From: Motilibacter aurantiacus
Lineage (GTDB): Bacteria; Actinomycetota; Actinomycetes; Motilibacterales; Motilibacteraceae
Direction of reading: 5' to 3'
DNA: 64,000 bases
Assembly (NCBI RefSeq): GCF_011250645.1
Contig: NZ_JAANNO010000007.1
Span: 132,635 to 196,634 of the forward strand
Each line of letters starts with the position of its first letter. Within the stretch, counting starts at the first letter, position 1. The notes beneath the pieces are model-generated. The model ran no database searches. It saw only the letters and a list, made by a program, of their open reading frames with translations, and was not told where the DNA came from. The position numbers were made by a program, and so were the translations under genes. Positions 421-42,228 of this stretch are shown in pieces.

Positions 421-1149
421 TCAGACCGCCCGGCCGGCGAGGGCCTGCTCGACGGGCGCCGGCGGCCGGTAGGTGACGCGGAGCCGGCCGAGGATCCAGA
501 GCGCCTCGACGCCGTCCTTCCAGGTCAGCTTCTTGCCCTCTTCGCGACGGCGAGCTTTGTAGCTGATCGGCACCTCGTAGGGGCGCACCCCGCTCTTGAG
601 CAGCTTGCCGGTCAGCTCGGCCTCCATGCCGAAGCCCGCCGAGCGCACGTCGAGCGCGCGGTACAGGTCCAGCGGCAGCAGCTTGAAGCACGTCTCGAGA
701 TCGCTGATCCACGCGTCATAAAGAACATTGGCGGCCATCGTCACACCCTTGTTCCCCATGACGTACCAGAAGGAGAAGGCGGTGTGACTGCCGAAGCTGC
801 GCGTGCCATAGACCACCGAGGCCTCGTTGTCCAGAACGGGGCGCAGCAGCCCGGGGATCTCCTCGGGCGCGTACTCGAGGTCCGCGTCGCACATGATGAC
901 GTAATCACCGGTGGCGAGGCCCGCGGCCGTTCGGATAGCGGCGCCCTTGCCCGCGTTCTGGGCGTGGTCGTGGCGGGTGACCCGCGGGTCCGTGATTCCG
1001 TCGAGGATCTTTCCGGTCCCGTCCACGCTGCCGTCGTTGACGATCACGAGCTCCATGTCGCAGCCGTAATCGACCGCGAGCACGCGCTCCAAGGCGTGCG
1101 CGAGCGTGCGCTCCTCGTTGTACACGGGCATGAGGATCGACAGCTTCAC
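421..1149 (-). CDS. Glycosyltransferase family 2 (DPM1-like)
   Basis: This is a 242-aa GT-A glycosyltransferase. From the chosen start it has the N-terminal strand LSILMPVYNEE (3-13), the nucleotide-binding VNDGS (37-41), and the DXD-type metal site MCDADLEY (87-93). The C-terminal EGKKLTWKDGVEAL segment recurs in dolichyl-phosphate-mannose-synthase-like GT2 enzymes. An in-frame ATG at 1197 exists, but the GTG at 1149 has GGAG 8 bp upstream and puts the beta-1 strand at the N-terminus as in the family. There are no C-terminal membrane segments, so it is probably a soluble or peripheral enzyme that transfers a sugar to polyprenyl phosphate or a lipid-linked glycan. The acceptor is unknown. Confidence 0.8.
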   Translation of the reverse strand: MKLSILMPVYNEERTLAHALERVLAVDYGCDMELVIVNDGSVDGTGKILDGITDPRVTRHDHAQNAGKGAAIRTAAGLATGDYVIMCDADLEYAPEEIPGLLRPVLDNEASVVYGTRSFGSHTAFSFWYVMGNKGVTMAANVLYDAWISDLETCFKLLPLDLYRALDVRSAGFGMEAELTGKLLKSGVRPYEVPISYKARRREEGKKLTWKDGVEALWILGRLRVTYRPPAPVEQALAGRAV

Positions 1150-1280
1150 GGGGCGCACTCCGTCCGAACGGAAGATTGGCAAGGGGGCCGGGACCACCGC
1201 ATGTTATGGCAGGACGCCGGGGTCATCACGCAGCGCGCAAGAAGGGCGACCCCGGCCGCCGGGGGGCGAAGGCTGCGAAC

Positions 1281-2459
1281 TCACTCGCCCTGCTGGCGGA
1301 GGTACCGACCAAAGTGCGGCACGGTGAACGACACGCTGCCTCGCTCCGCCGAGTAGACCAGCCCCTTCTTGAGCAGGCCGTCGCGCACCGGCGACAGGCT
1401 CGCCGGCTTTCGGCCGAGGGCCGTGGCCACGGCAGAGGTCGATACCGGCCCGTCGGCGGACTCACCTCCCAGTTCGGCCATGGTCCGCATGTACTCGCGC
1501 TCGGCCGGGGTCGCACGCTCGTAGCGGCTGCCGAAGAACCCGACCGCGAGCTCCCGCTCCGCCTCGGGAAGTCCGACGCGAACGTCCGCCGCGGTGATGG
1601 GGGAGCTCGGCGCCACGTCCCACGCCGCTTTCCCGTAGGCCTGCACGAAGTAGGGGTAGCCCTCCGTGGCGGCGTACAGGGCGTCGAGCGCGTCCTCGGA
1701 GTACTCGACGTCCTCGTCAGCAGCGGGCGCGACGAGCGCTCGGTCCGCCGCGTCCCGGTCGAGCCGGTCGATGCGCGCGTAGCGGAACAAGCGCTCGGAG
1801 TAGGACTTGCTCGCACTGAGCACCGCCGGAAGGTGCGGCAGCCCCGCCCCCACCACCACCAGCGGGCCGCCGGTCTGGCTCAGCTCGTGGCACGCTCCGC
1901 ACAGCGCGTCGACGTCCCCGCCCGGCAGGTCCTGCATCTCGTCGATGAACAGGGCGATGCCGGTGCCCACGTCGCCGGCCACGGCCGCGGCGTCACCCAG
2001 CAGCTCCACCAGGTCGATCTCGAGATCGCCGGTGTCGGCTCGCCCCCGCGCCGCCAGCCCGTCGATCCCCGGGTGCCACTTGCCGTTGCCGCTCTTGAGC
2101 GCGAACGCCTTGAGGACCGACAGGAACTCCTCGACCCGGTCGGGTGAACGGTGACGGGGAGCGATCTCGCGAACCGCCATGAAGAGCGCGCTCGACAACT
2201 GCCCGCGCATCGACTGGCCCGGCCGCGCCTCGATCTTGCCCGTGCCCCACAGCCGCTGCAGGGCAGCGCTGCGCAGCGTGTTGAGCAGGACGGTCTTGCC
2301 CACGCCGCGCAGCCCGACCAGCACGAGGCTGCGCTCCGGCCGGCCGCGGGCGACGCGCTCGAGCACCACGTCGAACACGTCGAGCTCTCGATCGCGCCCG
2401 GCGAGCTCGGGCGGCCGCTGACCGGCTCCAGGGGCGTACGGGTTGCGGACCGGGTCCAT
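1281..2459 (-). CDS. AAA-type ATP-binding protein with C-terminal winged-helix-like region
   Basis: This 392-aa protein resembles AAA_16/archaeal-ATPase-like P-loop proteins. Walker A is GLRGVGKT (about 49-56) and Walker B is ALFIDEMQD (about 169-177), followed by a sensor-like VVVGAGLP stretch. The last ~80 residues (YMRTMAELGG, VATALGRKPASLSPVRDGLL) look like a winged helix. It has no signal peptide or membrane segment. It lies between glycan genes but is not an obvious part of the pathway; ATPases of this kind are widespread single genes in actinomycetes with no firm function. The ATG at 2459 follows a TACAGT box by 7 bp, which suggests a leaderless message. Confidence 0.75.
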   Translation of the reverse strand: MDPVRNPYAPGAGQRPPELAGRDRELDVFDVVLERVARGRPERSLVLVGLRGVGKTVLLNTLRSAALQRLWGTGKIEARPGQSMRGQLSSALFMAVREIAPRHRSPDRVEEFLSVLKAFALKSGNGKWHPGIDGLAARGRADTGDLEIDLVELLGDAAAVAGDVGTGIALFIDEMQDLPGGDVDALCGACHELSQTGGPLVVVGAGLPHLPAVLSASKSYSERLFRYARIDRLDRDAADRALVAPAADEDVEYSEDALDALYAATEGYPYFVQAYGKAAWDVAPSSPITAADVRVGLPEAERELAVGFFGSRYERATPAEREYMRTMAELGGESADGPVSTSAVATALGRKPASLSPVRDGLLKKGLVYSAERGSVSFTVPHFGRYLRQQGE

Positions 2460-2466
2460 GTCGAGG

Positions 2467-2472
2467 ACTGTA
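2467..2472 (-). promoter_or_regulatory. Probable -10 box (TACAGT), leaderless start of the AAA ATPase gene
   Basis: On the minus strand TACAGT lies 7 bp before the ATG at 2459 and there is no Shine-Dalgarno sequence between them. The spacing matches the TANNNT boxes before several other starts in this window. I infer a leaderless transcript. Confidence 0.45.
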
Positions 2473-2565
2473 TAAGTGTTTCTAGTTGCCGAGCTAGAGG
2501 GCCAGCGCTCGACCGGTGGGGCACCGGGGCAACGGTCGTACCCCTCGCCGGGCGATCACGGCACT

Positions 2566-2571
2566 TACCCT
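2566..2571 (+). promoter_or_regulatory. Probable -10 box (TACCCT), leaderless start of the acyltransferase gene
   Basis: TACCCT ends 8 bp before the GTG at 2580, with no ribosome-binding site between. With the minus-strand box at 2467-2472 it makes 2460-2579 a divergent promoter region. Confidence 0.4.
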
Positions 2572-2579
2572 GTCCCCTC

Positions 2580-3729
2580 GTGTCGACCCGACCCCGCGAC
2601 GGCTACGTCCCCGGAGTGCACGCCGCGCGAGCAATCGCGGTCGTGCTGGTGCTGCTCGCCCACGTCATCGGGCTGTGGACGGCCACCCAGGGCGGGGTGA
2701 TCTGGAAGCCCTGGTCCGCGTACCTCGAGCTCTTCGTCGAGACCCTGCATGTGGACCACCAGAACGGCGGCCACGCCGGGCTGCTGCTCTTCTTCCTGGT
2801 CAGCGGCTTCATCGTCTCCCAGGCGGGGGAGCGCGAGGACCGCATCACGTTCTTCGTGAAGCGGGCTGCGCGGCTGCTGCCGGCCATGACCCTAGCCGTC
2901 CTCTTCGGCCTGTGGGTCGCTCGGCACGGGGAGGCCAAGGGCTGGTACCCGATGTTCGGATTCGTCTCGGGCAACGCGCACTTCCCCCACGTCGCCGTGG
3001 AGGCCGTCGGGTTCGGCGTGCTCTTCGGCGGGCTCAGCGTCCTGTTCGTGCTGTGGTCCCTGCACGTGGAGTACGCGTGGTACTTCCTGCTCGGCGCCTT
3101 TCCTCCCGCTGGCGCGGCGCTGGCCGGTCGGGATCACCGTCGCCCTCACCGCTGCGGTCAGCGCCCTGGGGCTCTTCGTCGAGGACCGGACATTCGGGCC
3201 CGCGTCTCCCAACGTCTCCCTCGTGCCGTACCTGCTCGTCATCCTGCTGGGCCGGTGGGTCTACCTGTGGCACTCCGACCGGCTCGCGACGCTGCCGGCC
3301 GTCGGGGCAGGCGTGGCCGTGCTCGTCCTCTACACCTTGTCCCAGAGGCACTTCGTCGGCGCCGACGCCTACTCGGGCGCCTACCCGCGCTGGCTGGCGG
3401 CCCTGTGGGCGACCGTCCTGTTCCTCGCACTGCTGCGGTTCGTCACGTCCGGCCCGTGGCGCCCGATCGCTTTCGTCGCAGACATCAGCTACGGCCTCTA
3501 CCTCTTCCACATCCCCGTGATGTGGGTGGTGCTGCCGATCGTGTCGCCGAACGGCACACGGCTGACCCTCGGGTTCACGTGCACAGCCGCGGCCCTCGTC
3601 CTGGTCGCCTGGGCGTCCGAGCGGTTCGTCGAGCGGCCGGTGCGCCGGGGTGCGCGGGCGACGCTGGCGCGGTGGCACGGCCGGAAGGGCGTCGACCGGG
3701 TCGCAGTGCCGTCGCTCCGGGGAGCCTGA
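2580..3729 (+). pseudogene. Acyltransferase family 3 (OafA/YrhL-like) interrupted by a one-base frameshift
   Basis: The first part (2580 to about 3100) reads as the N-terminus of an acyltransferase 3 membrane protein: HAARAIAVVLVLLAHVIG with the family histidine, then FFLVSGFIVSQ and several hydrophobic helices. At 3099-3101 (CTTTCC) the frame is lost. Removing one T restores GAFLPLARRWPVGITVAL and joins it to the downstream frame, which continues with PYLLVILLGRWVYLW, DISYGLYLFHIPVMW and ends at 3729 with ASERFVERPVRRGA, the normal end of the family. Both halves are otherwise intact, so this is either a very recent inactivation or a sequencing error in a T run. If functional, it would O-acetylate or otherwise acylate a surface glycan. 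Confidence 0.75.
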
Positions 3730-3760
3730 CGGGAGGGCAGGCCGCTCCCGTCAGGCTCCC
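3720..3760. terminator. Bidirectional terminator hairpin
   Basis: There is a perfect 16-bp inverted repeat, arms 3720-3735 (GGGAGCCTGACGGGAG) and 3745-3760, with a 9-nt loop. It lies between the convergent acyltransferase and fcl genes and includes the acyltransferase stop codon. No strong T tract follows on either strand, as is usual in high-GC actinomycetes. Confidence 0.75.
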
Positions 3761-3776
3761 GGGGCACGCAAGCGGG

Positions 3777-4742
3777 TCACAGCCGGGCGGAGTCCACGTT
3801 GTCGAGGAACCAGCGGTACGTGCTCGCGATGCCGTCGCGCAGACCGATCTCCGCCTTCCAGCCGAGGGCGTTGATCCGGGACACGTCGAGCAGCTTGCGC
3901 GGCGTGCCGTCGGGCTTGGTGGTGTCGAAGACGATCTCCCCGTCGAAGCCGACCACGTCGGCCACCGTCTCGGCGAGCTCGCGGATCGTGACGTCCTCCC
4001 CGACGCCGATGTTGATCGGGGCCGGCTCGTCGTAGCGCTCGAGCAGCGTGAGGACCGCGCGGGACAGGTCGTCGGTGTGCAGGAACTCCCGGCGCGGGGT
4101 CCCCGTCCCCCAGACGACGTACTCCTTGTCCCCCCGCTGCTTGGCCTCGTGCACCTTGCGGATCAGCGCGGGCAGCACGTGGGAGTTCTGCAGGTCGAAG
4201 TTGTCGCCGGGGCCGTAGAGGTTGGTGGGCATCGCCGACACGTAGGGCAGCGAGTGCTGCCGCCGCAATGCCTGCACCTGGAGGACGCCCGCGATCTTCG
4301 CGATCGCGTAGGCGTCGTTCGTGGGCTCCAGCAGCCCCGTCAGCAGCGAGTCCTCGCGGATGGGCTGCTCGGCGAACTTCGGGTAGATGCAGCTGGACCC
4401 GAGGAAGAGCAGCTTGCGCACGCCGACGCGCGCGGCGGCGTCGAGCACGTTGACCTGGATGCGGACGTTGTCGCTCAGGAAGTCCGCGGGGTAGGTGTTG
4501 TTCGCGACGATGCCGCCGACCTTCGCGGCCGCGAGGACCACGTAGTCGGGGCGCTGGTCGTCGAAGAAGGCGTCGACGGCCCCCCGGTCGCGCAGGTCCA
4601 GCTCCTTGGAGCTGCGGCTGACCACGTCGCTGAAGCCCTCGGCGACCAGGTGGCGGTAGATCGCGGAGCCGACGAGGCCGCGATGCCCCGCGACGTAGAT
4701 GCGCGCACTGCGGGGCAGCGTGGACTGGACCGCCGGTTCCAT
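3777..4742 (-). CDS. fcl: GDP-L-fucose synthase (GDP-4-keto-6-deoxy-D-mannose epimerase/reductase)
   Basis: This 321-aa short-chain dehydrogenase makes the last step to GDP-L-fucose, from the product of Gmd (18.3-19.3 kb). It shows the NADP-binding GHRGLVGSA (19-27), the serine of GSSCIYP (116-121), the catalytic YAIAK (145-149), and the family string PTNLYGPGDNFD. An upstream in-frame start at 4859 would add 39 basic residues. I chose ATG 4742 because GGAGGAG lies 8 bp before it and the length then matches the family (about 310-320 aa). Its 15-bp leader is shared with rmlB. The gene stands alone, convergent with the acyltransferase. Confidence 0.93.
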   Translation of the reverse strand: MEPAVQSTLPRSARIYVAGHRGLVGSAIYRHLVAEGFSDVVSRSSKELDLRDRGAVDAFFDDQRPDYVVLAAAKVGGIVANNTYPADFLSDNVRIQVNVLDAAARVGVRKLLFLGSSCIYPKFAEQPIREDSLLTGLLEPTNDAYAIAKIAGVLQVQALRRQHSLPYVSAMPTNLYGPGDNFDLQNSHVLPALIRKVHEAKQRGDKEYVVWGTGTPRREFLHTDDLSRAVLTLLERYDEPAPINIGVGEDVTIRELAETVADVVGFDGEIVFDTTKPDGTPRKLLDVSRINALGWKAEIGLRDGIASTYRWFLDNVDSARL

Positions 4743-4748
4743 CAACTG

Positions 4749-4763
4749 TCTCCTCCGCATCGA
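4749..4763 (-). promoter_or_regulatory. 15-bp leader with strong Shine-Dalgarno, identical to that of rmlB
   Basis: On the minus strand this reads TCGATGCGGAGGAGA, containing GGAGGAG before the fcl ATG. The same 15 bases precede rmlB at 25378-25392. This box decides the fcl start. Confidence 0.6.
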
Positions 4764-4913
4764 CCTGTGCATGCGCGACAACAGCACCCGCGCACGTATT
4801 CTTTCCAGCGTACTGGCGGCAGCGCCCCGCGTCCGCGGTTGTGCGGGGCCTCCGGGCAACGCTCAGGCCGTGGACCGTGCGCCGGTCGCCGTTCCGTCGC
4901 CACCGGGAGGGAC

Positions 4914-6431
4914 ATGCTCCAGCGGGGGGCCGCGACCGCGCCCGACGAGCCGACGACCGCGCGGGAGGAGCCGCTCCCGAGCGAGCCCGGGTCGGCACCC
5001 AGAGCCGGCTTGCTCCCGCGGCTGGCCTACGCGGGCCTCATCGCGCTGTCCCTGCTGACCGTGACGGTCCGACCGGTCACCGAGCTGCTGCATCTGCCCC
5101 ATGCGCTGGTCAACCTGGACGCCGTCCTCGTCCCACCGCTCGCCGCCGTGGCTCTTGCCCTCTCCCTGCGCACCTGGCGTACGACGGGCCGGTTCGGACG
5201 CGCGCTGACCGTTGTCGTGCTCGTCGCCTGCGCCGCCGCTGCCAGTTCCTGGGTGCTCGGCAGCCCGCACAACTGGGCCGGTTTCGGGCTGGCGTACTCC
5301 TCAGTCCTGCTCTTCCCCCTGGCGCTCTACGTCGCGTTCCACGCCGCTCGCCACGTCGGTGGCCGCGCCGACGTCATGGCCCTGCGGGTGATGGTGCTGC
5401 TGCAGATCGTCGTCTGCCTCGTGCAGTACGTGGAGAACGACGTGGCGGCGAAAGCCCCCTTCGCGGCTGACCTGGTCGACGGTACGACCTCGCACAATTT
5501 CTGGCCCGCCTTCGCGATGCCGGCTGCGCTCGTCCTCGCCCTCGTCGAGCGGCATCGCTACCGCTATCTCTGGCTGGTCAGCGTCTCCATCCTCGCGGTC
5601 TACTCCGAGGCCAAGACCGCCCTGCTGCTCTGGTTGCCCGCGGCGCTCGCCCTCCTCCCGCTGGCCGCCCTCGTGCGCGCCCGCGCTGCACGCCGCACCC
5701 GCCGCGAGCCTCGACCGGTCACCGCGGAGCGCTTGTCCGAATGGGCCGTGGGAGTCGCTGCGGTCGCCGTGATCGCGGCCGGCCTCGTGTGGAACCCCTC
5801 CGTGCAGGGCACCTGGGACGTCTTCGTGGGTCACGCCAACGAGATCGAGCAGTTCAGTGCCGGCAAGGAGACGCCCGAGACCGCCGGCTACCCCACCCTT
5901 CGCGACGCCGCGACCGCGGTTCGGGAGGGCACGACCGAGTCGCCGACGAGCTTCCTGTTCGGCCTCGGCCCGGGCAACTCGGTCAGTCACGCCGCCCAGG
6001 TGCTGGCGCAAGGACCGGCGAGCGGCGTGGGGCTGCCCGCGCCTTCGGACCTCGCCGTGCAGCTGGTCGGCAGGGAGTCCCGGCTCCAGTTCGAGGACGC
6101 GCAGAGCAGTCTGCTCGGCCTGTGGGGGGACCTGGGAGCAACCGGGACCCTCGCCTACGCCGGTGCCCTCGCACTCGCCGTACTGGGCCTCCTGGGCACC
6201 GTGCGTCGATCGGCCCTGCGCCTTCCACTGAGGGCTGCCGTCCTGGTACTCGCGGGAGGCGTGGTCGCCGTCGGCCTGCCGCTGGACTGGCAGGAGCAGG
6301 CCGGTGTCGTCCTGCCCCTCGCGCTGTCCATCGTGGTTGCGTGCCGCACGCGCGACCCGCAGCCTGCCGCCACCGTCGCAGTGGCCGGCGCCTCGGGCGA
6401 GCCGGGCGAGAACCATCCCGGACCCCGGTAG
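4914..6431 (+). CDS. O-antigen polymerase/ligase-like multi-pass membrane protein
   Basis: This is a 505-aa very hydrophobic protein with roughly ten or more membrane helices (for example about 38-58, 66-90, 100-120, 130-150, 190-235), a large extracytoplasmic loop around 300-400 and further C-terminal helices. The loop ending FLFGLGPGNSVS, then FEDAQSSLLGLWGDLGATGTL, is the pattern seen in O-antigen ligase/Wzy-type proteins, where a long periplasmic loop precedes a late helix. ATG 4914 has GGGAGG 3 bp upstream, rather close. It probably polymerises or ligates lipid-linked glycan repeats outside the membrane. The family is poorly conserved, so the exact role is inferred from topology and neighbours. 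Confidence 0.7.
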   Translation: MLQRGAATAPDEPTTAREEPLPSEPGSAPRAGLLPRLAYAGLIALSLLTVTVRPVTELLHLPHALVNLDAVLVPPLAAVALALSLRTWRTTGRFGRALTVVVLVACAAAASSWVLGSPHNWAGFGLAYSSVLLFPLALYVAFHAARHVGGRADVMALRVMVLLQIVVCLVQYVENDVAAKAPFAADLVDGTTSHNFWPAFAMPAALVLALVERHRYRYLWLVSVSILAVYSEAKTALLLWLPAALALLPLAALVRARAARRTRREPRPVTAERLSEWAVGVAAVAVIAAGLVWNPSVQGTWDVFVGHANEIEQFSAGKETPETAGYPTLRDAATAVREGTTESPTSFLFGLGPGNSVSHAAQVLAQGPASGVGLPAPSDLAVQLVGRESRLQFEDAQSSLLGLWGDLGATGTLAYAGALALAVLGLLGTVRRSALRLPLRAAVLVLAGGVVAVGLPLDWQEQAGVVLPLALSIVVACRTRDPQPAATVAVAGASGEPGENHPGPR

Positions 6432-6441
6432 CCTCGGCCGG

Positions 6442-7614
6442 ATGCGTGTCCTCGTCGCCCACAACTACTACCGATCGGCGATACCGTCGGGCGAGAACCG
6501 GGTCGTGGACCTCGAGATCGGGGCGCTCCGAGCCGCAGGGCACGACGTCGTCACCTACCTGCGCTCGAGTGACGAGATCCCTGGGATGGCCCCTGCCGAG
6601 AAGGTGCGCGCCGCCGTGTCGCCCGTCAGCTCCCCCCGCGCGGCCGCGGACGTCCGCCACTTGCTGGCCGAGTCGCCCGTCGACGTGATGCACCTGCACA
6701 ACCCGTACCCCTTGATCTCCTTGGACGTGGTCCGCGCGGCCCGGGCGGCAGGCGTGCCCGTGGTGCAGACGGTGCACAACCACCGGCACACGTGCATGAA
6801 GGGCACGTACCAGCGCGAGGGGCACGACTGTCGGGACTGTCTGACCCACCGCTCGCCCTGGCCCGGGGTGCATCACGCGTGTTACCGCGACTCCAGGGCG
6901 CAGAGCGCGGTGATGGCGGCAGCCCTGCTACGGCACCGCTCGACATATCAGCTCATCGACCGTTTCATCGCGCTCACCCCCGAGATCGAGGCCAGCCTGC
7001 TGGCGAGCGGCTTCCCGGCCTCCCGGATCACAATCAAGCCGAATTCCGTACCCGACCCCGGCCCGGCGAGCTCGCTGGGCGAGGGCTTCGCCTTCGTTGG
7101 GCGGCTCTCGGAGGAGAAGGGGGTGCTGGCGCTGATCGAGGCCTGGTCCCGCTTCGAGCCAGGCAGCCTCGGTAGGTTGCGCATCGCCGGCGACGGCCCC
7201 GCTCGGGACGAGGTCGACCGGCTCGCCGCGAGCAGACCGGACATCGACGTGCTGGGCCGTGTCGAGCCGGACGCGGTCGCGGACCTCCTGGCGACCAGCG
7301 CGGCGCTCGCGGTTCCCTCGCTGTGGGCCGAGGCGCTCCCGCTGGTCGTCCTCGAGGCACTGGCCGCCGGTCGTGCCCTGCTCGTCACCGACATGGGTGG
7401 CCTGCCGGGAGTCGTCGACGACGAGGTGGGCCTCGTGGTGCCACCGTCGGTGGACGGCTTGGCTGACGGGCTCGTGGCGCTGGCACGCGATCGGGAGGGG
7501 CTCACTCGGCGAGGTGCGGCCGCTCGGGCCCGCTACCTGACGAGGTACCACCCGAGCGTCGTGACCGAGAGCCTGGTCGCCGTGTACACGGCAGCGCGGA
7601 ACGAGCGCTCGTGA
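6442..7614 (+). CDS. Glycosyltransferase family 4 (GT-B)
   Basis: This is a 390-aa GT-B enzyme. The N-terminal acceptor domain (MRVLVAHNYYRSAIPSGENR) leads to an unusual cysteine- and histidine-rich stretch at about 112-145 (VHNHRHTCMKGTY, CRDC) seen in a subset of GT4 enzymes. The C-terminal donor domain has FVGRLSEEKGVLALIEAW, IAGDGPARDEV and PSLWAEALPLVVLEALAAG, the usual E-x7-E nucleotide-sugar site. ATG 6442 lies 10 bp after the upstream stop, with TAGCCT 7 bp before it, so a second promoter is possible. The stop overlaps the next start (GTGA). Donor and acceptor are unknown. Confidence 0.85.
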   Translation: MRVLVAHNYYRSAIPSGENRVVDLEIGALRAAGHDVVTYLRSSDEIPGMAPAEKVRAAVSPVSSPRAAADVRHLLAESPVDVMHLHNPYPLISLDVVRAARAAGVPVVQTVHNHRHTCMKGTYQREGHDCRDCLTHRSPWPGVHHACYRDSRAQSAVMAAALLRHRSTYQLIDRFIALTPEIEASLLASGFPASRITIKPNSVPDPGPASSLGEGFAFVGRLSEEKGVLALIEAWSRFEPGSLGRLRIAGDGPARDEVDRLAASRPDIDVLGRVEPDAVADLLATSAALAVPSLWAEALPLVVLEALAAGRALLVTDMGGLPGVVDDEVGLVVPPSVDGLADGLVALARDREGLTRRGAAARARYLTRYHPSVVTESLVAVYTAARNERS

Positions 7615-38256: not shown

Positions 38257-38281
38257 AGGCCCATCGTGCCTCAACGCCACG

Positions 38282-38315
38282 GTGCCCCGCCGTCTCCGGG
38301 GAGACGGCGGGGCAC
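38282..38315 (-). terminator. Terminator hairpin after the amidase-FFAVPW operon
   Basis: A perfect 15-bp stem, arms 38282-38296 (GTGCCCCGCCGTCTC) and 38301-38315, with a 4-nt loop. It lies 19 bp past the stop of the 63-aa gene on the minus strand and before the rhodanese gene. Confidence 0.75.
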
Positions 38316-38334
38316 GCGGCGTGCGGGAAGGGCG

Positions 38335-38526
38335 TCAGACGCGGTCCGACGCGGCCTCGAAGGCGTCCTCGGGGTCGTAGGGGTAGTAGACCGCCCCGGC
38401 CTTGTGGCCCCACGGGACGGCGAAGAACGGCTGGGCGTCCTTGCCGGGGGTGTCGAGGTAGACGGTCGCGTGCTCCACCGGGCGCCACGGCACGGCGAAG
38501 AACGCCTGGGGGACGGCGAGGCTCAC
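38335..38526 (-). CDS. 63-aa protein of two FFAVPW repeats, coupled to the amidase
   Basis: I do not recognise a family. The GTG at 38526 overlaps the amidase stop (GTGA), so translation is probably coupled. The protein is two imperfect 25-residue repeats: QAFFAVPWRPVEHATVY..DTPGKDA (about 8-31) and QPFFAVPWGHKAGAVYY..YDPEDA (33-55). Both follow FFAVPW-x6-VY-x4-P-x-x-D-A, with an acidic tail EAASDRV. It has no signal peptide, no transmembrane helix and no cysteine. The repeated motif, small size and coupling to an exported hydrolase are consistent with a substrate peptide, inhibitor or chaperone. No function is shown by the sequence. Confidence 0.7.
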   Translation of the reverse strand: MSLAVPQAFFAVPWRPVEHATVYLDTPGKDAQPFFAVPWGHKAGAVYYPYDPEDAFEAASDRV

Positions 38527-40430
38527 TTGAAGGCCTCCTCGGCGATCAGCGGGTCGGCCGAGAGCTCCGGCGGGACGTCCGCGCCGGTCTCGCCCGACGC
38601 CTGCACGGACAGGCGACGCAGCGACATCGTGCTGACGACCGGGGCCGGGTCCGGCGGAGCCATGTGGTTCCACTCGGGGTAGTTGGCCTGGTAGTCGATC
38701 GCCGCCTGGACGATCTGCGCCTCGGTGAAGCGCGGGCCCCAGAACGCGGCGTTGATCGGGAGCGGCTCGCTGGTGGAGTCCATGCCGATCGGGAAGCTGA
38801 CCATCGGCCAGGTCAGGGCGTTCGGCAGCTGGTAGTAGCGGCGGTAGTTGCGCAGCTGCGTCCCGCCGGTACGCGGGCCGGCCTTGGCGCCGAGCGGCAG
38901 GACGAGCATGAAGTCCACGCCGTAGTCGTCGAGCGCCTTCTGGAAGTTGGCCTGCAGCTGCTTGCGGCGGCGCTCGCCCTCCATCCGCACCGACTCGGGC
39001 ACCTCGCCGGCGCGGCGGGTCGCGACGTCGTAGTCGCCGAAGTTGCTGCGCAGCGTGTTCGCCTGCGGGGTGGGGACGGTCGCCGCGAACTGCTTGACCG
39101 CCTCCCAGTAGCCGATCTCGAAGCGGTTGGGGCTGAGCACCGCGCTCGCCGGCGAGATCGCCGCGCCGTCGGAGGTCCGGAAGAGGACGGTGCTCGCGCC
39201 CGCGCTGAAGTACGGGTCGTTCTCGATCTTCGTGACGTCGAGGCCGGGGAAGTCGATGACCTCGGCGCCCAGCTTGACCAGCTCGGCCTTGAAGCGGTTG
39301 AACGCGGCGAGGTAGTCCGCGTCGTAGGAGTTGGCCGGGGGCGTGCCGATGGCCGAGCCGCTCATCCAGTCCGTCTGCGGTACGCCGATGCGCACGCCGG
39401 TCAGCGGCTTCTTGCCGTTGCGCGCCTCGATCGGCATCTGCGGCGCGGGGATCGGTGCCGAGAGCGAGATCGGGTCGTTGACCTGGTCCGGGCCCTGGAT
39501 GACCGACTGGATCAGCGCGGCGTCGCGGACGGAGCGCGCGATCGGGCCGACCACGTCGTAGCCGGGGGACAGCGGCATGACACCGGAAACCGGGTTCAGG
39601 CCGAGCGAGGGCTTGATGCCGCTCGCGCCGTTGATCGCGGCCGGCATCATGATCGAGCCGCCGGTCTCCTCGCCGATCGTGGCCGCCGCGAGACGGGCGA
39701 TCGGCGCGACGCCCGAGCCCTGCGAGGACCCACCGGGGATGTACTTCTTGTTCCACGCGTTGCCGGAGAACGTGCCGCTGATCGAGCCGGAGAACGCCGA
39801 CGCCACCGTGTGTCCGATGAGGACCGCGCCCTGCGCGCGGAGGCGGGCGACGATCGTGGCGTCCTGGGACGCGACGTTGCCGTCGTACGCGTGCGTGCCG
39901 TTCTTGGACTCCCGGCCCTTGATCGCGACGGAGTCCTTGATGCCGAACGGGATGCCGCAGAGCGGGGGGACGTTCAGCGAGTAGTTCTCCCGCTTGAGCC
40001 ACGCGTCGGCCGCGGCGGCCTGGGCCAGCGCCTCCTCGCGGTCGATGCGCGCGAAGGCGTTGTAGCCGCCGTTGTCGCCGTAGACCTCGAAGGGGCCGTT
40101 GAACGTGTCGATCCGGTCGAGGTAGGCCTGGGTGATCTGGACGGCGGTCAGCTCCCGGCTGCGCAGGAGCACGATCATCTCGACGATTTCGTAGTCGACG
40201 ATCCGGGCGCGCGTCGGGATGTGCTGGCGCTTGGGCAGGTCCTTGGTGATCGGGTACGGGGCGGCGGCGTGCGCGGCCGGCGCGACGGCGACGCCGCCGA
40301 CGACGGACGCCGCAGCGCCCCCGGCGGCGAGGGCCGCACCGCGGCCGAGGAACGAACGGCGGCTGAAGCCGCGCTGCGCGGGGAGCTCGGCGTCGAGGTC
40401 GGTCGACGCGGGAGCGGGGAGATCGGTCAT
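38523..40430 (-). CDS. Tat-exported amidase-signature hydrolase
   Basis: This 635-aa enzyme starts with a twin-arginine signal (FSRRSFLGRGAALAAGG at about 22-38, then a hydrophobic stretch and APAAHA). The amidase-signature core follows: PLCGIPFGIKDSVAIKG carries the general-base lysine, YIPGGSSQGSG the bridging cis-serine, and GEETGGSIMMPA the nucleophilic serine. RIDTFNGPFEVYGDNGGYNAFARID near the start is unusual for the family. At 635 aa it is longer than most (450-500). It probably cleaves an amide outside the membrane. I chose ATG 40430; GTG 40472 adds 14 residues. It is first in an operon with the 63-aa FFAVPW gene. Confidence 0.88.
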   Translation of the reverse strand: MTDLPAPASTDLDAELPAQRGFSRRSFLGRGAALAAGGAAASVVGGVAVAPAAHAAAPYPITKDLPKRQHIPTRARIVDYEIVEMIVLLRSRELTAVQITQAYLDRIDTFNGPFEVYGDNGGYNAFARIDREEALAQAAAADAWLKRENYSLNVPPLCGIPFGIKDSVAIKGRESKNGTHAYDGNVASQDATIVARLRAQGAVLIGHTVASAFSGSISGTFSGNAWNKKYIPGGSSQGSGVAPIARLAAATIGEETGGSIMMPAAINGASGIKPSLGLNPVSGVMPLSPGYDVVGPIARSVRDAALIQSVIQGPDQVNDPISLSAPIPAPQMPIEARNGKKPLTGVRIGVPQTDWMSGSAIGTPPANSYDADYLAAFNRFKAELVKLGAEVIDFPGLDVTKIENDPYFSAGASTVLFRTSDGAAISPASAVLSPNRFEIGYWEAVKQFAATVPTPQANTLRSNFGDYDVATRRAGEVPESVRMEGERRRKQLQANFQKALDDYGVDFMLVLPLGAKAGPRTGGTQLRNYRRYYQLPNALTWPMVSFPIGMDSTSEPLPINAAFWGPRFTEAQIVQAAIDYQANYPEWNHMAPPDPAPVVSTMSLRRLSVQASGETGADVPPELSADPLIAEEAFK

Positions 40431-40728: not shown

Positions 40729-41190
40729 ATGCGCACAGCTGCGATAGCCGCCGCGGCCCTGCTGGCCCTCGCCGGTTGCGGGGGCGAGGACGACGCGGGT
40801 ACGCCGACCAGCGCCGTGCCGACCGCCTCCGCGGGCGTCGGCACCCCCGAGCCGGGGACGCCGGCGACCGACCCGGCGGGCGCCCCCACCCGGCTGCAGG
40901 TCACCGTCGACCTCGCCGCGAACATGGCCTACGACTGGACGCTGACCTGCGACCCGCCGGGCGGCGACCACCCGCGGGCGGCCGACGCCTGCGCCGCGCT
41001 GGCGGCGTACGGGCTCGAGCAGCTGCCCCTGCCGGACCAGGTGTGCACCGAGCAGTTCGGCGGGCCGGAGACGGCCAGGGTGCAGGGGACCCTCGACGGG
41101 AAGCCGGTCGACGTGTCGCTCGACCGCACCGACGGCTGCCGCATCGCCCAGTGGGGCCGGTTGCGCCCGCTGCTGCAGCCGACGACCTGA
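40729..41190 (+). CDS. Lipoprotein with subtilisin-inhibitor-like (SSI) domain
   Basis: This 153-aa protein has a lipoprotein signal (AAIAAAALLALAGCGGED, lipobox cysteine 17), then a Thr/Pro/Gly/Ala-rich linker to about 45. The SSI-like domain follows: WTLTCDPPGGDHPRAADACAALAAYG, then QVCTEQFGGPETARVQGTLDGKPV and LDRTDGCRIAQW. Its four cysteines match the two disulphides of Streptomyces subtilisin inhibitor. The reactive-site loop around the third cysteine differs from SSI, so protease specificity, or any inhibition, is unknown. Membrane anchoring is unusual for SSI. It diverges from the amidase operon. Confidence 0.8.
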   Translation: MRTAAIAAAALLALAGCGGEDDAGTPTSAVPTASAGVGTPEPGTPATDPAGAPTRLQVTVDLAANMAYDWTLTCDPPGGDHPRAADACAALAAYGLEQLPLPDQVCTEQFGGPETARVQGTLDGKPVDVSLDRTDGCRIAQWGRLRPLLQPTT

Positions 41191-41253: not shown

Positions 41254-42228
41254 GTGCCCGAGGAGGAGCAGGCCGCGGGGGTGCGGCTGACCAACCTGGA
41301 CCAGCCGTTGCTCGAGGGCTCGGACGTCACCAAGCGCGACCTGGTCGACTACCTCGAGGCGATGGCCGACCGGCTGCTGCCCGTGCTCCGCGGGCGCGCG
41401 CTGAGCGTCGTCCGCGTGCTGCGCGGCCAGGCGCCCTTCATGCAGAAGAACCTCCCGACGTACGCCCCGGCGTCCGTTCCCACGCTCGAGGTGCCCACGC
41501 AGGACGGCCGACGGACGGTCCACTACCCGGTCTGCGACTCCCGCGAGACGCTGCTGTGGCTCGCGAACCAGCGGGCGGTCGAGTACCACCCCACGCTCTT
41601 CCGCGGCCTGGCGTTCGACGAGCCCACGCACCTGGTCGTGGACGTCGACCCCCCGGACGTCCCGGACGCCTTCGACCGCGCCGTCGCCGGTGCCCTGCTC
41701 GTCCGCCGGGCCCTCGACGACGCGGGCCTGGCCGCCGTGACGAAGACCAGCGGCGCCAAGGGCGTGCACGTCGTGGTGCCGCTCGCGCCCGGGCAGGCAG
41801 CCTCCGACGCCGCGGCCGCCACGCGGGCCCTCGCCGCCCGGGCCGAGCGGCTGGACCCGGAGCTGGCCACCACGGCGTTCGTCGTGGAGGAGCGCGGCGG
41901 CAAGGTGTTCCTCGACGCGACGCGCGCGGGGGGCGCGACGCTGGCGGCGGCCTACACCCCGCGGGCCCGTCCCGGGGCACCGGTGTCGTTCCCGATCGCC
42001 TGGGAGAGCCTCGAGGGCGCCTCTCCGGCGGCGTACACCATCCGGACCGTGCCCGGGCTGCTCGCCGGGGCCGACCCCTGGGCGGAGCTGATGCCGCCGC
42101 CCCAGGTGCTCCCGCAGGACCTGCTGGCCGAGGGGCACACGATCCCGGTGGCACGGGTCGCCGCCATGCACGCCGGCAAGCGCCGGGCGCGGGCACGCCG
42201 CGCCGCCGAGTCCGCGGCCGAGGACTGA
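41254..42228 (+). CDS. Stand-alone LigD-type polymerase (archaeo-eukaryotic primase family)
   Basis: This 324-aa protein corresponds to the polymerase domain of LigD, the end-joining repair enzyme. VRLTNLDQPLLEGSDVTKRDLVDYL opens the fold, FMQKNLPTYAP follows, VVDVDPPDVPDAF carries the metal-binding DVD pair, SGAKGVHVVVPL the S-G-x-K-G-x-H nucleotide-binding motif, and VFLDATRAGGATLAAAYTPR precedes the closing PVSFPIAWESL. No ligase or nuclease domain is attached, and no Ku gene lies in the window. It may fill gaps in end joining, or act as a primase-like enzyme. GTG 41254 is the family-consistent start. Confidence 0.88.
   Translation: MPEEEQAAGVRLTNLDQPLLEGSDVTKRDLVDYLEAMADRLLPVLRGRALSVVRVLRGQAPFMQKNLPTYAPASVPTLEVPTQDGRRTVHYPVCDSRETLLWLANQRAVEYHPTLFRGLAFDEPTHLVVDVDPPDVPDAFDRAVAGALLVRRALDDAGLAAVTKTSGAKGVHVVVPLAPGQAASDAAAATRALAARAERLDPELATTAFVVEERGGKVFLDATRAGGATLAAAYTPRARPGAPVSFPIAWESLEGASPAAYTIRTVPGLLAGADPWAELMPPPQVLPQDLLAEGHTIPVARVAAMHAGKRRARARRAAESAAED

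What the first reader, a model, noticed from the sequence alone, without database searches (positions are those of the whole stretch)
38335..40430. Amidase coupled to a 63-aa protein built of two FFAVPW repeats
Seen: a Tat-signal amidase-signature enzyme is followed with a 4-bp overlap by a 63-aa gene whose protein is two 25-residue repeats, FFAVPW-x6-VY-x4-P-x2-DA, and a strong terminator ends the unit. I know of no described family with this motif. Coupling ensures a fixed ratio, as for a substrate peptide, maturation partner or inhibitor. The small protein has no signal of its own, so it may ride out with the folded Tat cargo or act inside on the precursor. This is the best candidate here for an undescribed system.
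Basis: partly seen in the sequence, partly recalled or inferred. Interest (0 to 1): 0.8.

Follow-up and report, generated by a model that had tools for sequence, protein, structure and literature searches.

The report
Amidase with a two-repeat partner protein
A secreted amidase is almost always encoded together with a tiny undescribed protein built of two similar repeats; the pair is kept in at least 23 genomes from soil actinobacteria to Pseudomonas, which suggests a new kind of helper subunit for this very common enzyme class.

Summary
On the minus strand, a 635-aa Tat-signal amidase (40430-38523) overlaps by 4 bp a 63-aa gene (38526-38335) coding for two repeats with a 25-residue period. 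The small gene is real and conserved: homologues lie next to amidase orthologues in 23 genomes (Motilibacter, Mumia, Micromonosporaceae, Streptosporangiales, Streptomyces, Cellulosimicrobium, Patulibacter, two Pseudomonas). Outside Patulibacter the overlap is always exactly 4 bp. In 394 genomes of the class, the small-protein profile hit strongly only the four that have the amidase. No Pfam, NCBIfam or PADLOC family matches. Most likely it is a non-catalytic partner that binds the amidase and stabilises or matures it, as AtzG does for AtzE, but of unrelated sequence; with Tat amidases it probably rides out with the enzyme. Pseudomonas amidases lack a Tat signal yet keep the partner, so export cannot be its only role. 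In Patulibacter one partner gene sits between two amidases of different clades, which fits a two-armed clamp. Binding, export and substrate remain untested; AlphaFold2 runs were uninformative. A new accessory-protein family; a new variant of a known kind.

The parts
38523..40430 (-). Tat-signal amidase-signature enzyme, 635 aa; motifs IKDS (K165), GGSSQGSG and ETGGSI of the Ser-cisSer-Lys triad region intact; conserved C-terminal tail ELSADPLIAEEAFK after a variable linker
   Evidence: PF01425 E 5.5e-62; nearest solved relative peptide amidase 1m21, 3.5e-44 with the profile; Tat motif; tail conservation
38335..38526 (-). Two-repeat partner protein, 63 aa, GTG start overlapping the amidase stop by 4 bp; no signal peptide apparent
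   Evidence: Homologues beside amidase orthologues in 23 genomes; alignment A3; dN/dS about 0.18
38485..38502 (-). Repeat 1 core, FFAVPW (residues 9-14)
   Evidence: Read from sequence; aligned
38410..38427 (-). Repeat 2 core, FFAVPW (residues 34-39); W39 is kept in at least 90% of the family
   Evidence: Read from sequence; aligned
38275..38322 (-). Strong hairpin downstream of the pair (possible U-less terminator)
   Evidence: Fold -47.8 kcal/mol, z -5.8; no T-run; related inverted repeat in M. deserti

Best explanation
The 63-aa protein is a non-catalytic partner subunit of its amidase. SHOWN: the pair is a conserved two-gene unit, overlapping by 4 bp, with linked occurrence and parallel divergence, and nothing else is conserved around it. 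INFERRED: the two aromatic repeats (FLTVxW type) bind the amidase, possibly through its conserved C-terminal SNDPL tail or with each repeat holding one amidase protomer, and are needed for the enzyme to fold, stay soluble or assemble. Where the amidase has a Tat signal, the complex forms in the cytoplasm before export (Tat carries folded proteins) and the partner leaves with it as a hitchhiker. The substrate is unknown; a small amide or peptide amide used for nitrogen scavenging is a guess from the Pseudomonas neighbourhood.
For: Linkage: all amidase orthologues found by the genome scan carry the small gene immediately downstream or, in Patulibacter arrays, beside them, in actinobacteria, Patulibacter and Pseudomonas. 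Outside Patulibacter all overlaps are exactly 4 bp. Reverse test: the small-protein profile hits at E<1e-20 in exactly the 4 of 394 class genomes that have the amidase; next best is 0.0017. Parallel divergence of the two proteins, r = 0.93 over 20 pairs. No third gene is conserved across the neighbourhoods. Pseudomonas amidases have no signal yet keep the partner, as expected for a subunit or folding partner. Patulibacter partners have no N-terminal signal but carry a Pro-rich linker plus a C-terminal domain that weakly resembles (E 0.005) the C-terminus of a protein with an evident signal peptide, as expected if exported with the Tat amidase. Patulibacter gene order is amidase-small-amidase, with the upstream and downstream amidases in two separate clades, fitting two repeats bridging two protomers. 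[quoted passage not shown] PaoB/PaoC hitchhike on Tat-signal PaoA (PMC4273604).
Against: No physical interaction has been shown. AlphaFold2 gave no fold for the small protein alone (pLDDT 52.6), and the natural in-frame readthrough of a Patulibacter amidase plus partner was modelled too poorly (amidase residues 149-275 below 50) to show docking; both alignments were shallow. One related amidase, on a Streptomyces plasmid, has neither partner nor Tat signal. Most amidase-signature enzymes are not known to need a partner (general knowledge). The mirror-tree value is inflated by shared ancestry. Conservation of 'EE' in the amidase tail may partly reflect the GAGGAG ribosome site of the small gene rather than docking.
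Confidence: 0.58

Rival explanations
1. Cytosolic inhibitor: the small protein blocks the amidase precursor until export, protecting the cell's own amides; the repeats plug two active sites.
For: The 4-bp overlap ties its synthesis to that of the amidase; it has no signal of its own; the amidase-signature relatives include the toxin Tse8.
Against: The Pseudomonas pair has no export signal on either protein, so a permanently co-made inhibitor would have nothing to release it. Patulibacter partners carry a domain of a kind expected outside the cell. One partner gene per two amidases in Patulibacter.
Confidence: 0.15
2. Dedicated Tat chaperone (proofreading type) that binds the precursor and stays inside, as redox-enzyme maturation proteins do.
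For: Tat signal on nearly all actinobacterial orthologues; partner without signal.
Against: Partner kept with Tat-less Pseudomonas amidases; known Tat chaperones are larger helical proteins that bind the signal peptide (general knowledge).
Confidence: 0.13
3. Substrate or precursor peptide: the amidase processes the small protein, whose FFAVPW-type repeats are released as a bioactive peptide.
For: Two repeats with a hydrophobic hexapeptide core; adjacent hydrolase.
Against: No leader-core split: the cores and their flanks are all conserved, with variable length mainly at the ends. No other maturation or transport gene is conserved. Characterised amidase-signature enzymes mostly act on small amides (general knowledge), and the enzyme is exported while the peptide has no signal of its own.
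Confidence: 0.08

Closest known systems
AtzE-AtzG (1-carboxybiuret hydrolase of Pseudomonas sp. ADP)
   Same: Amidase-signature enzyme with a small non-catalytic partner encoded by an adjacent gene; AtzG is needed for solubility (PMC6219798).
   Different: AtzG is GatC-derived according to that paper; the window protein and its relatives match no GatC or other Pfam family and consist of two aromatic repeats; the partner gene lies downstream, not upstream (operon atzDGEHF); mostly Tat-signal enzymes.
GatA-GatC of the tRNA amidotransferase
   Same: A small protein associated with an amidase-signature subunit (general knowledge; the paper derives AtzEG from GatCA).
   Different: No sequence similarity found; no GatB role; the small protein here is about 60 aa and made of two repeats.
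Peptide amidase Pam (PDB 1m21)
   Same: Nearest solved relative of the amidase by sequence (3.5e-44); same active-site motifs.
   Different: Not known to me to have a small partner; the aligned region covers mainly the catalytic half.
Tat hitchhiker complexes (HybOC, PaoABC)
   Same: A signal-less partner carried out by a Tat-signal subunit (PMC4273604).
   Different: Those are cofactor-bearing redox enzymes; here a hydrolase, and the pair also exists without a Tat signal.

Membership tests
Amidase signature family (PF01425) | Domain profile match above the gathering score | tested here: met
   210.7 bits against cut-off 27
Amidase signature family (PF01425) | Ser-cisSer-Lys catalytic motifs | tested here: met
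   IKDS, GGSSQGSG and ETGGSI, aligned with 1m21
GatC/AtzG small partner family | Sequence match to GatC-type profiles | tested here: not met
   No Pfam hit for the window protein even at E 10; none to GatC among 22 members at E 1; no NCBIfam hit
GatC/AtzG small partner family | Forms an obligate complex with the amidase | not testable with these tools
   AlphaFold2 test of a natural readthrough fusion was inconclusive
Tat substrate | Twin-arginine motif, hydrophobic stretch, AxA-type site | tested here: met
   SRRSFL...APAAHAAA for the amidase
Tat hitchhiker partner | Partner without a signal exported only with the Tat subunit | tested here: inconclusive
   No signal visible on any small protein; export itself cannot be tested; weak domain evidence in Patulibacter
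RiPP precursor | Conserved leader with variable core and maturation genes nearby | tested here: not met
   Cores and flanks are both conserved; no shared neighbour genes

The most novel reading that the evidence does not exclude
The small protein is a two-armed clamp: each FLTVxW repeat holds one amidase protomer (in Patulibacter two different amidases), so that it builds a dimeric or heteromeric amidase complex that is exported through Tat as one unit. This would be an accessory-subunit family of amidase-signature enzymes unrelated to GatC.
Probability: 0.22. Interest if true: 0.7.

Novelty: new variant of a known kind. Interest (0 to 1): 0.6.

Why it matters
Amidase-signature enzymes are everywhere and are usually treated as single-chain enzymes; GatC and AtzG are known exceptions. 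A second, unrelated partner family would mean that accessory subunits arose more than once, and that some 'amidase' genes expressed alone in the laboratory may be dead or insoluble for want of a 60-aa neighbour that gene finders can miss. The Tat link would also give a minimal hitchhiker system.

Tried and rejected
Weak hits in the first relatives search (FAIPWG-like matches in L004, L006, L008, L012, E 0.01-0.05) look like chance matches inside longer ORFs, and nothing outside amidase carriers reached significance with the family profile. Structure prediction of the small protein: no fold. Natural in-frame readthrough of the Patulibacter amidase stop (TAA) used as a covalent pair for AlphaFold2: MAFFT misplaced the small rows until the amidase rows were cut to 8, and the resulting model was too poor to judge docking; no fold search was made because both models were low-confidence. 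PDB profile hits for the small protein (designed Ig proteins, E 0.0065 over 22 residues) and a PHROG hit (0.024) were judged chance. The plasmid and phage collections hold no copy of the small protein at the sensitivity used. Literature searches for a described pair returned nothing relevant. A phylum-wide profile search failed on the machine side; a phylum-wide search with the single amidase found only the window genome among 296.

Full report
What is there. The window (a Motilibacter-like actinobacterium; the M. deserti amidase is 97% identical) carries on its minus strand an amidase-signature gene from 40430 to 38523 and a 63-codon gene from 38526 to 38335. They overlap in GTGA. The amidase has a clear Tat signal (SRRSFL), an intact active-site motif set and PF01425 at 5.5e-62; its nearest solved relative is peptide amidase 1m21. 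The small protein has two repeats with a 25-residue period.

Is the small gene real? Yes. The second Motilibacter genome has the same pair; the small protein is 87% identical with dN 0.069 and dS 0.376. A search of 394 genomes of the class for the amidase found only four carriers, and in the two that are not Motilibacter a 50- to 65-residue ORF of the same two-repeat design follows with the same 4-bp overlap. A scan of one genome for each of 84,980 species with the amidase alignment, family searches and a Streptomyces search extended this to 23 genomes: two Motilibacter, two Mumia-type, Micromonosporaceae KJ-029 and a Micromonosporaceae MAG, two Plantactinospora, Micromonospora rosaria, three Planotetraspora, Microbispora, Sphaerisporangium, Thermomonospora, Actinoallomurus, Cellulosimicrobium, two Streptomyces, two Pseudomonas (P. 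ovata, P. viridiflava) and two Patulibacter. Outside Patulibacter every overlap is exactly 4 bp.

Is the link specific? The profile of the small family was run against the same 394 genomes: four strong hits (E below 1e-20), exactly the four amidase carriers; the remaining five hits have E 0.0017-0.008, which is about what chance gives for that many genomes. The only related amidase without a partner is on an IS-rich Streptomyces plasmid and has no Tat signal either. Distances between the amidases and between the small proteins correlate at 0.93, which is inflated by common descent. No third gene family recurs around the pair across the family.

Anatomy of the family. Alignment A3 gives roughly M-S-x-PFLTVxWxPxxNxGFxP-spacer-LLTVxWxPKLGTSxxPYDPxD. 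The two halves are homologous to each other (score 32 against -19.5 +/- 6.8 for shuffles). No family in Pfam, NCBIfam or PADLOC matches, and the PHROGs and PDB hits are insignificant. AlphaFold2 with 22 sequences predicts no fold for the protein alone (pLDDT 52.6); with such a shallow alignment this is only a hint that it may fold on its partner. The amidases share a C-terminal tail of the type SNDPL/SNDPV after a variable linker; part of its EE conservation could be due to the ribosome-binding GAGGAG of the next gene.

Two informative variants. First, the Pseudomonas amidases have no signal peptide but keep the partner, so the partner's basic role does not require export. Second, Patulibacter has arrays of the order amidase-small-amidase (twice in P. 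minatonensis, once in P. americanus), where the upstream and downstream amidases form two separate clades. One two-repeat protein per two amidases fits a bivalent clamp. There the small proteins also carry a Pro-rich linker and a C-terminal domain, which weakly resembles (E 0.005) the C-terminus of a protein with an evident signal peptide; since they have no signal, export with the Tat amidase is the simplest route. This is indirect.

Mechanism. Shown: a conserved, overlapping, strictly linked gene pair. Inferred: the small protein binds the amidase and is needed for folding, solubility or assembly, and leaves the cell with the folded enzyme when a Tat signal is present. The working precedent is AtzG, non-catalytic and needed for soluble AtzE (PMC6219798); hitchhiker export has precedents in HybOC and PaoABC (PMC4273604). 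It is not a member of the GatC/AtzG family by sequence. Inhibitor, Tat-chaperone and precursor-peptide readings are less likely but open. A nitrogen-scavenging role is suggested by the Pseudomonas location just downstream of a kinase and a sigma-54 regulator resembling NtrB/NtrC; the substrate is unknown.

Limits. No interaction data; the in-silico docking attempt through a natural in-frame readthrough was inconclusive. The hairpin after the pair is strong (-47.8 kcal/mol) but has no T-run. The literature searches cover open-licence papers only.

Noticed in passing
40729-41190 (+): Divergent gene for a lipoprotein-like protein with a subtilisin-inhibitor-like domain (SSI, E 9.6e-11); also present in M. 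deserti.
   Followed up: partly
L055 8212-16348 and L056 6551-11385: Patulibacter arrays amidase-small-amidase with two amidase clades, and small proteins extended by a Pro-rich linker and a basic C-terminal domain that matches no Pfam family.
   Followed up: yes
L030 and L031, about 1089-6958: The Pseudomonas copy of the pair sits directly downstream of NtrB/NtrC-like genes; an aldo/keto reductase gene overlaps convergently at its 3' end.
   Followed up: partly
L042 5983-7668: Streptomyces sp. WZ-12 plasmid amidase of this family without Tat signal and without the small partner, in an IS-rich stretch.
   Followed up: partly
L032 about 3960-6049: Cellulosimicrobium funkei amidase reading frame is broken by frameshifts (decay or assembly errors) while the small gene is intact.
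   Followed up: no
41254-42228 (+): LigD-type primase-polymerase domain protein (PF21686, E 8.4e-72) near the pair; also next to it in M. deserti.
   Followed up: no
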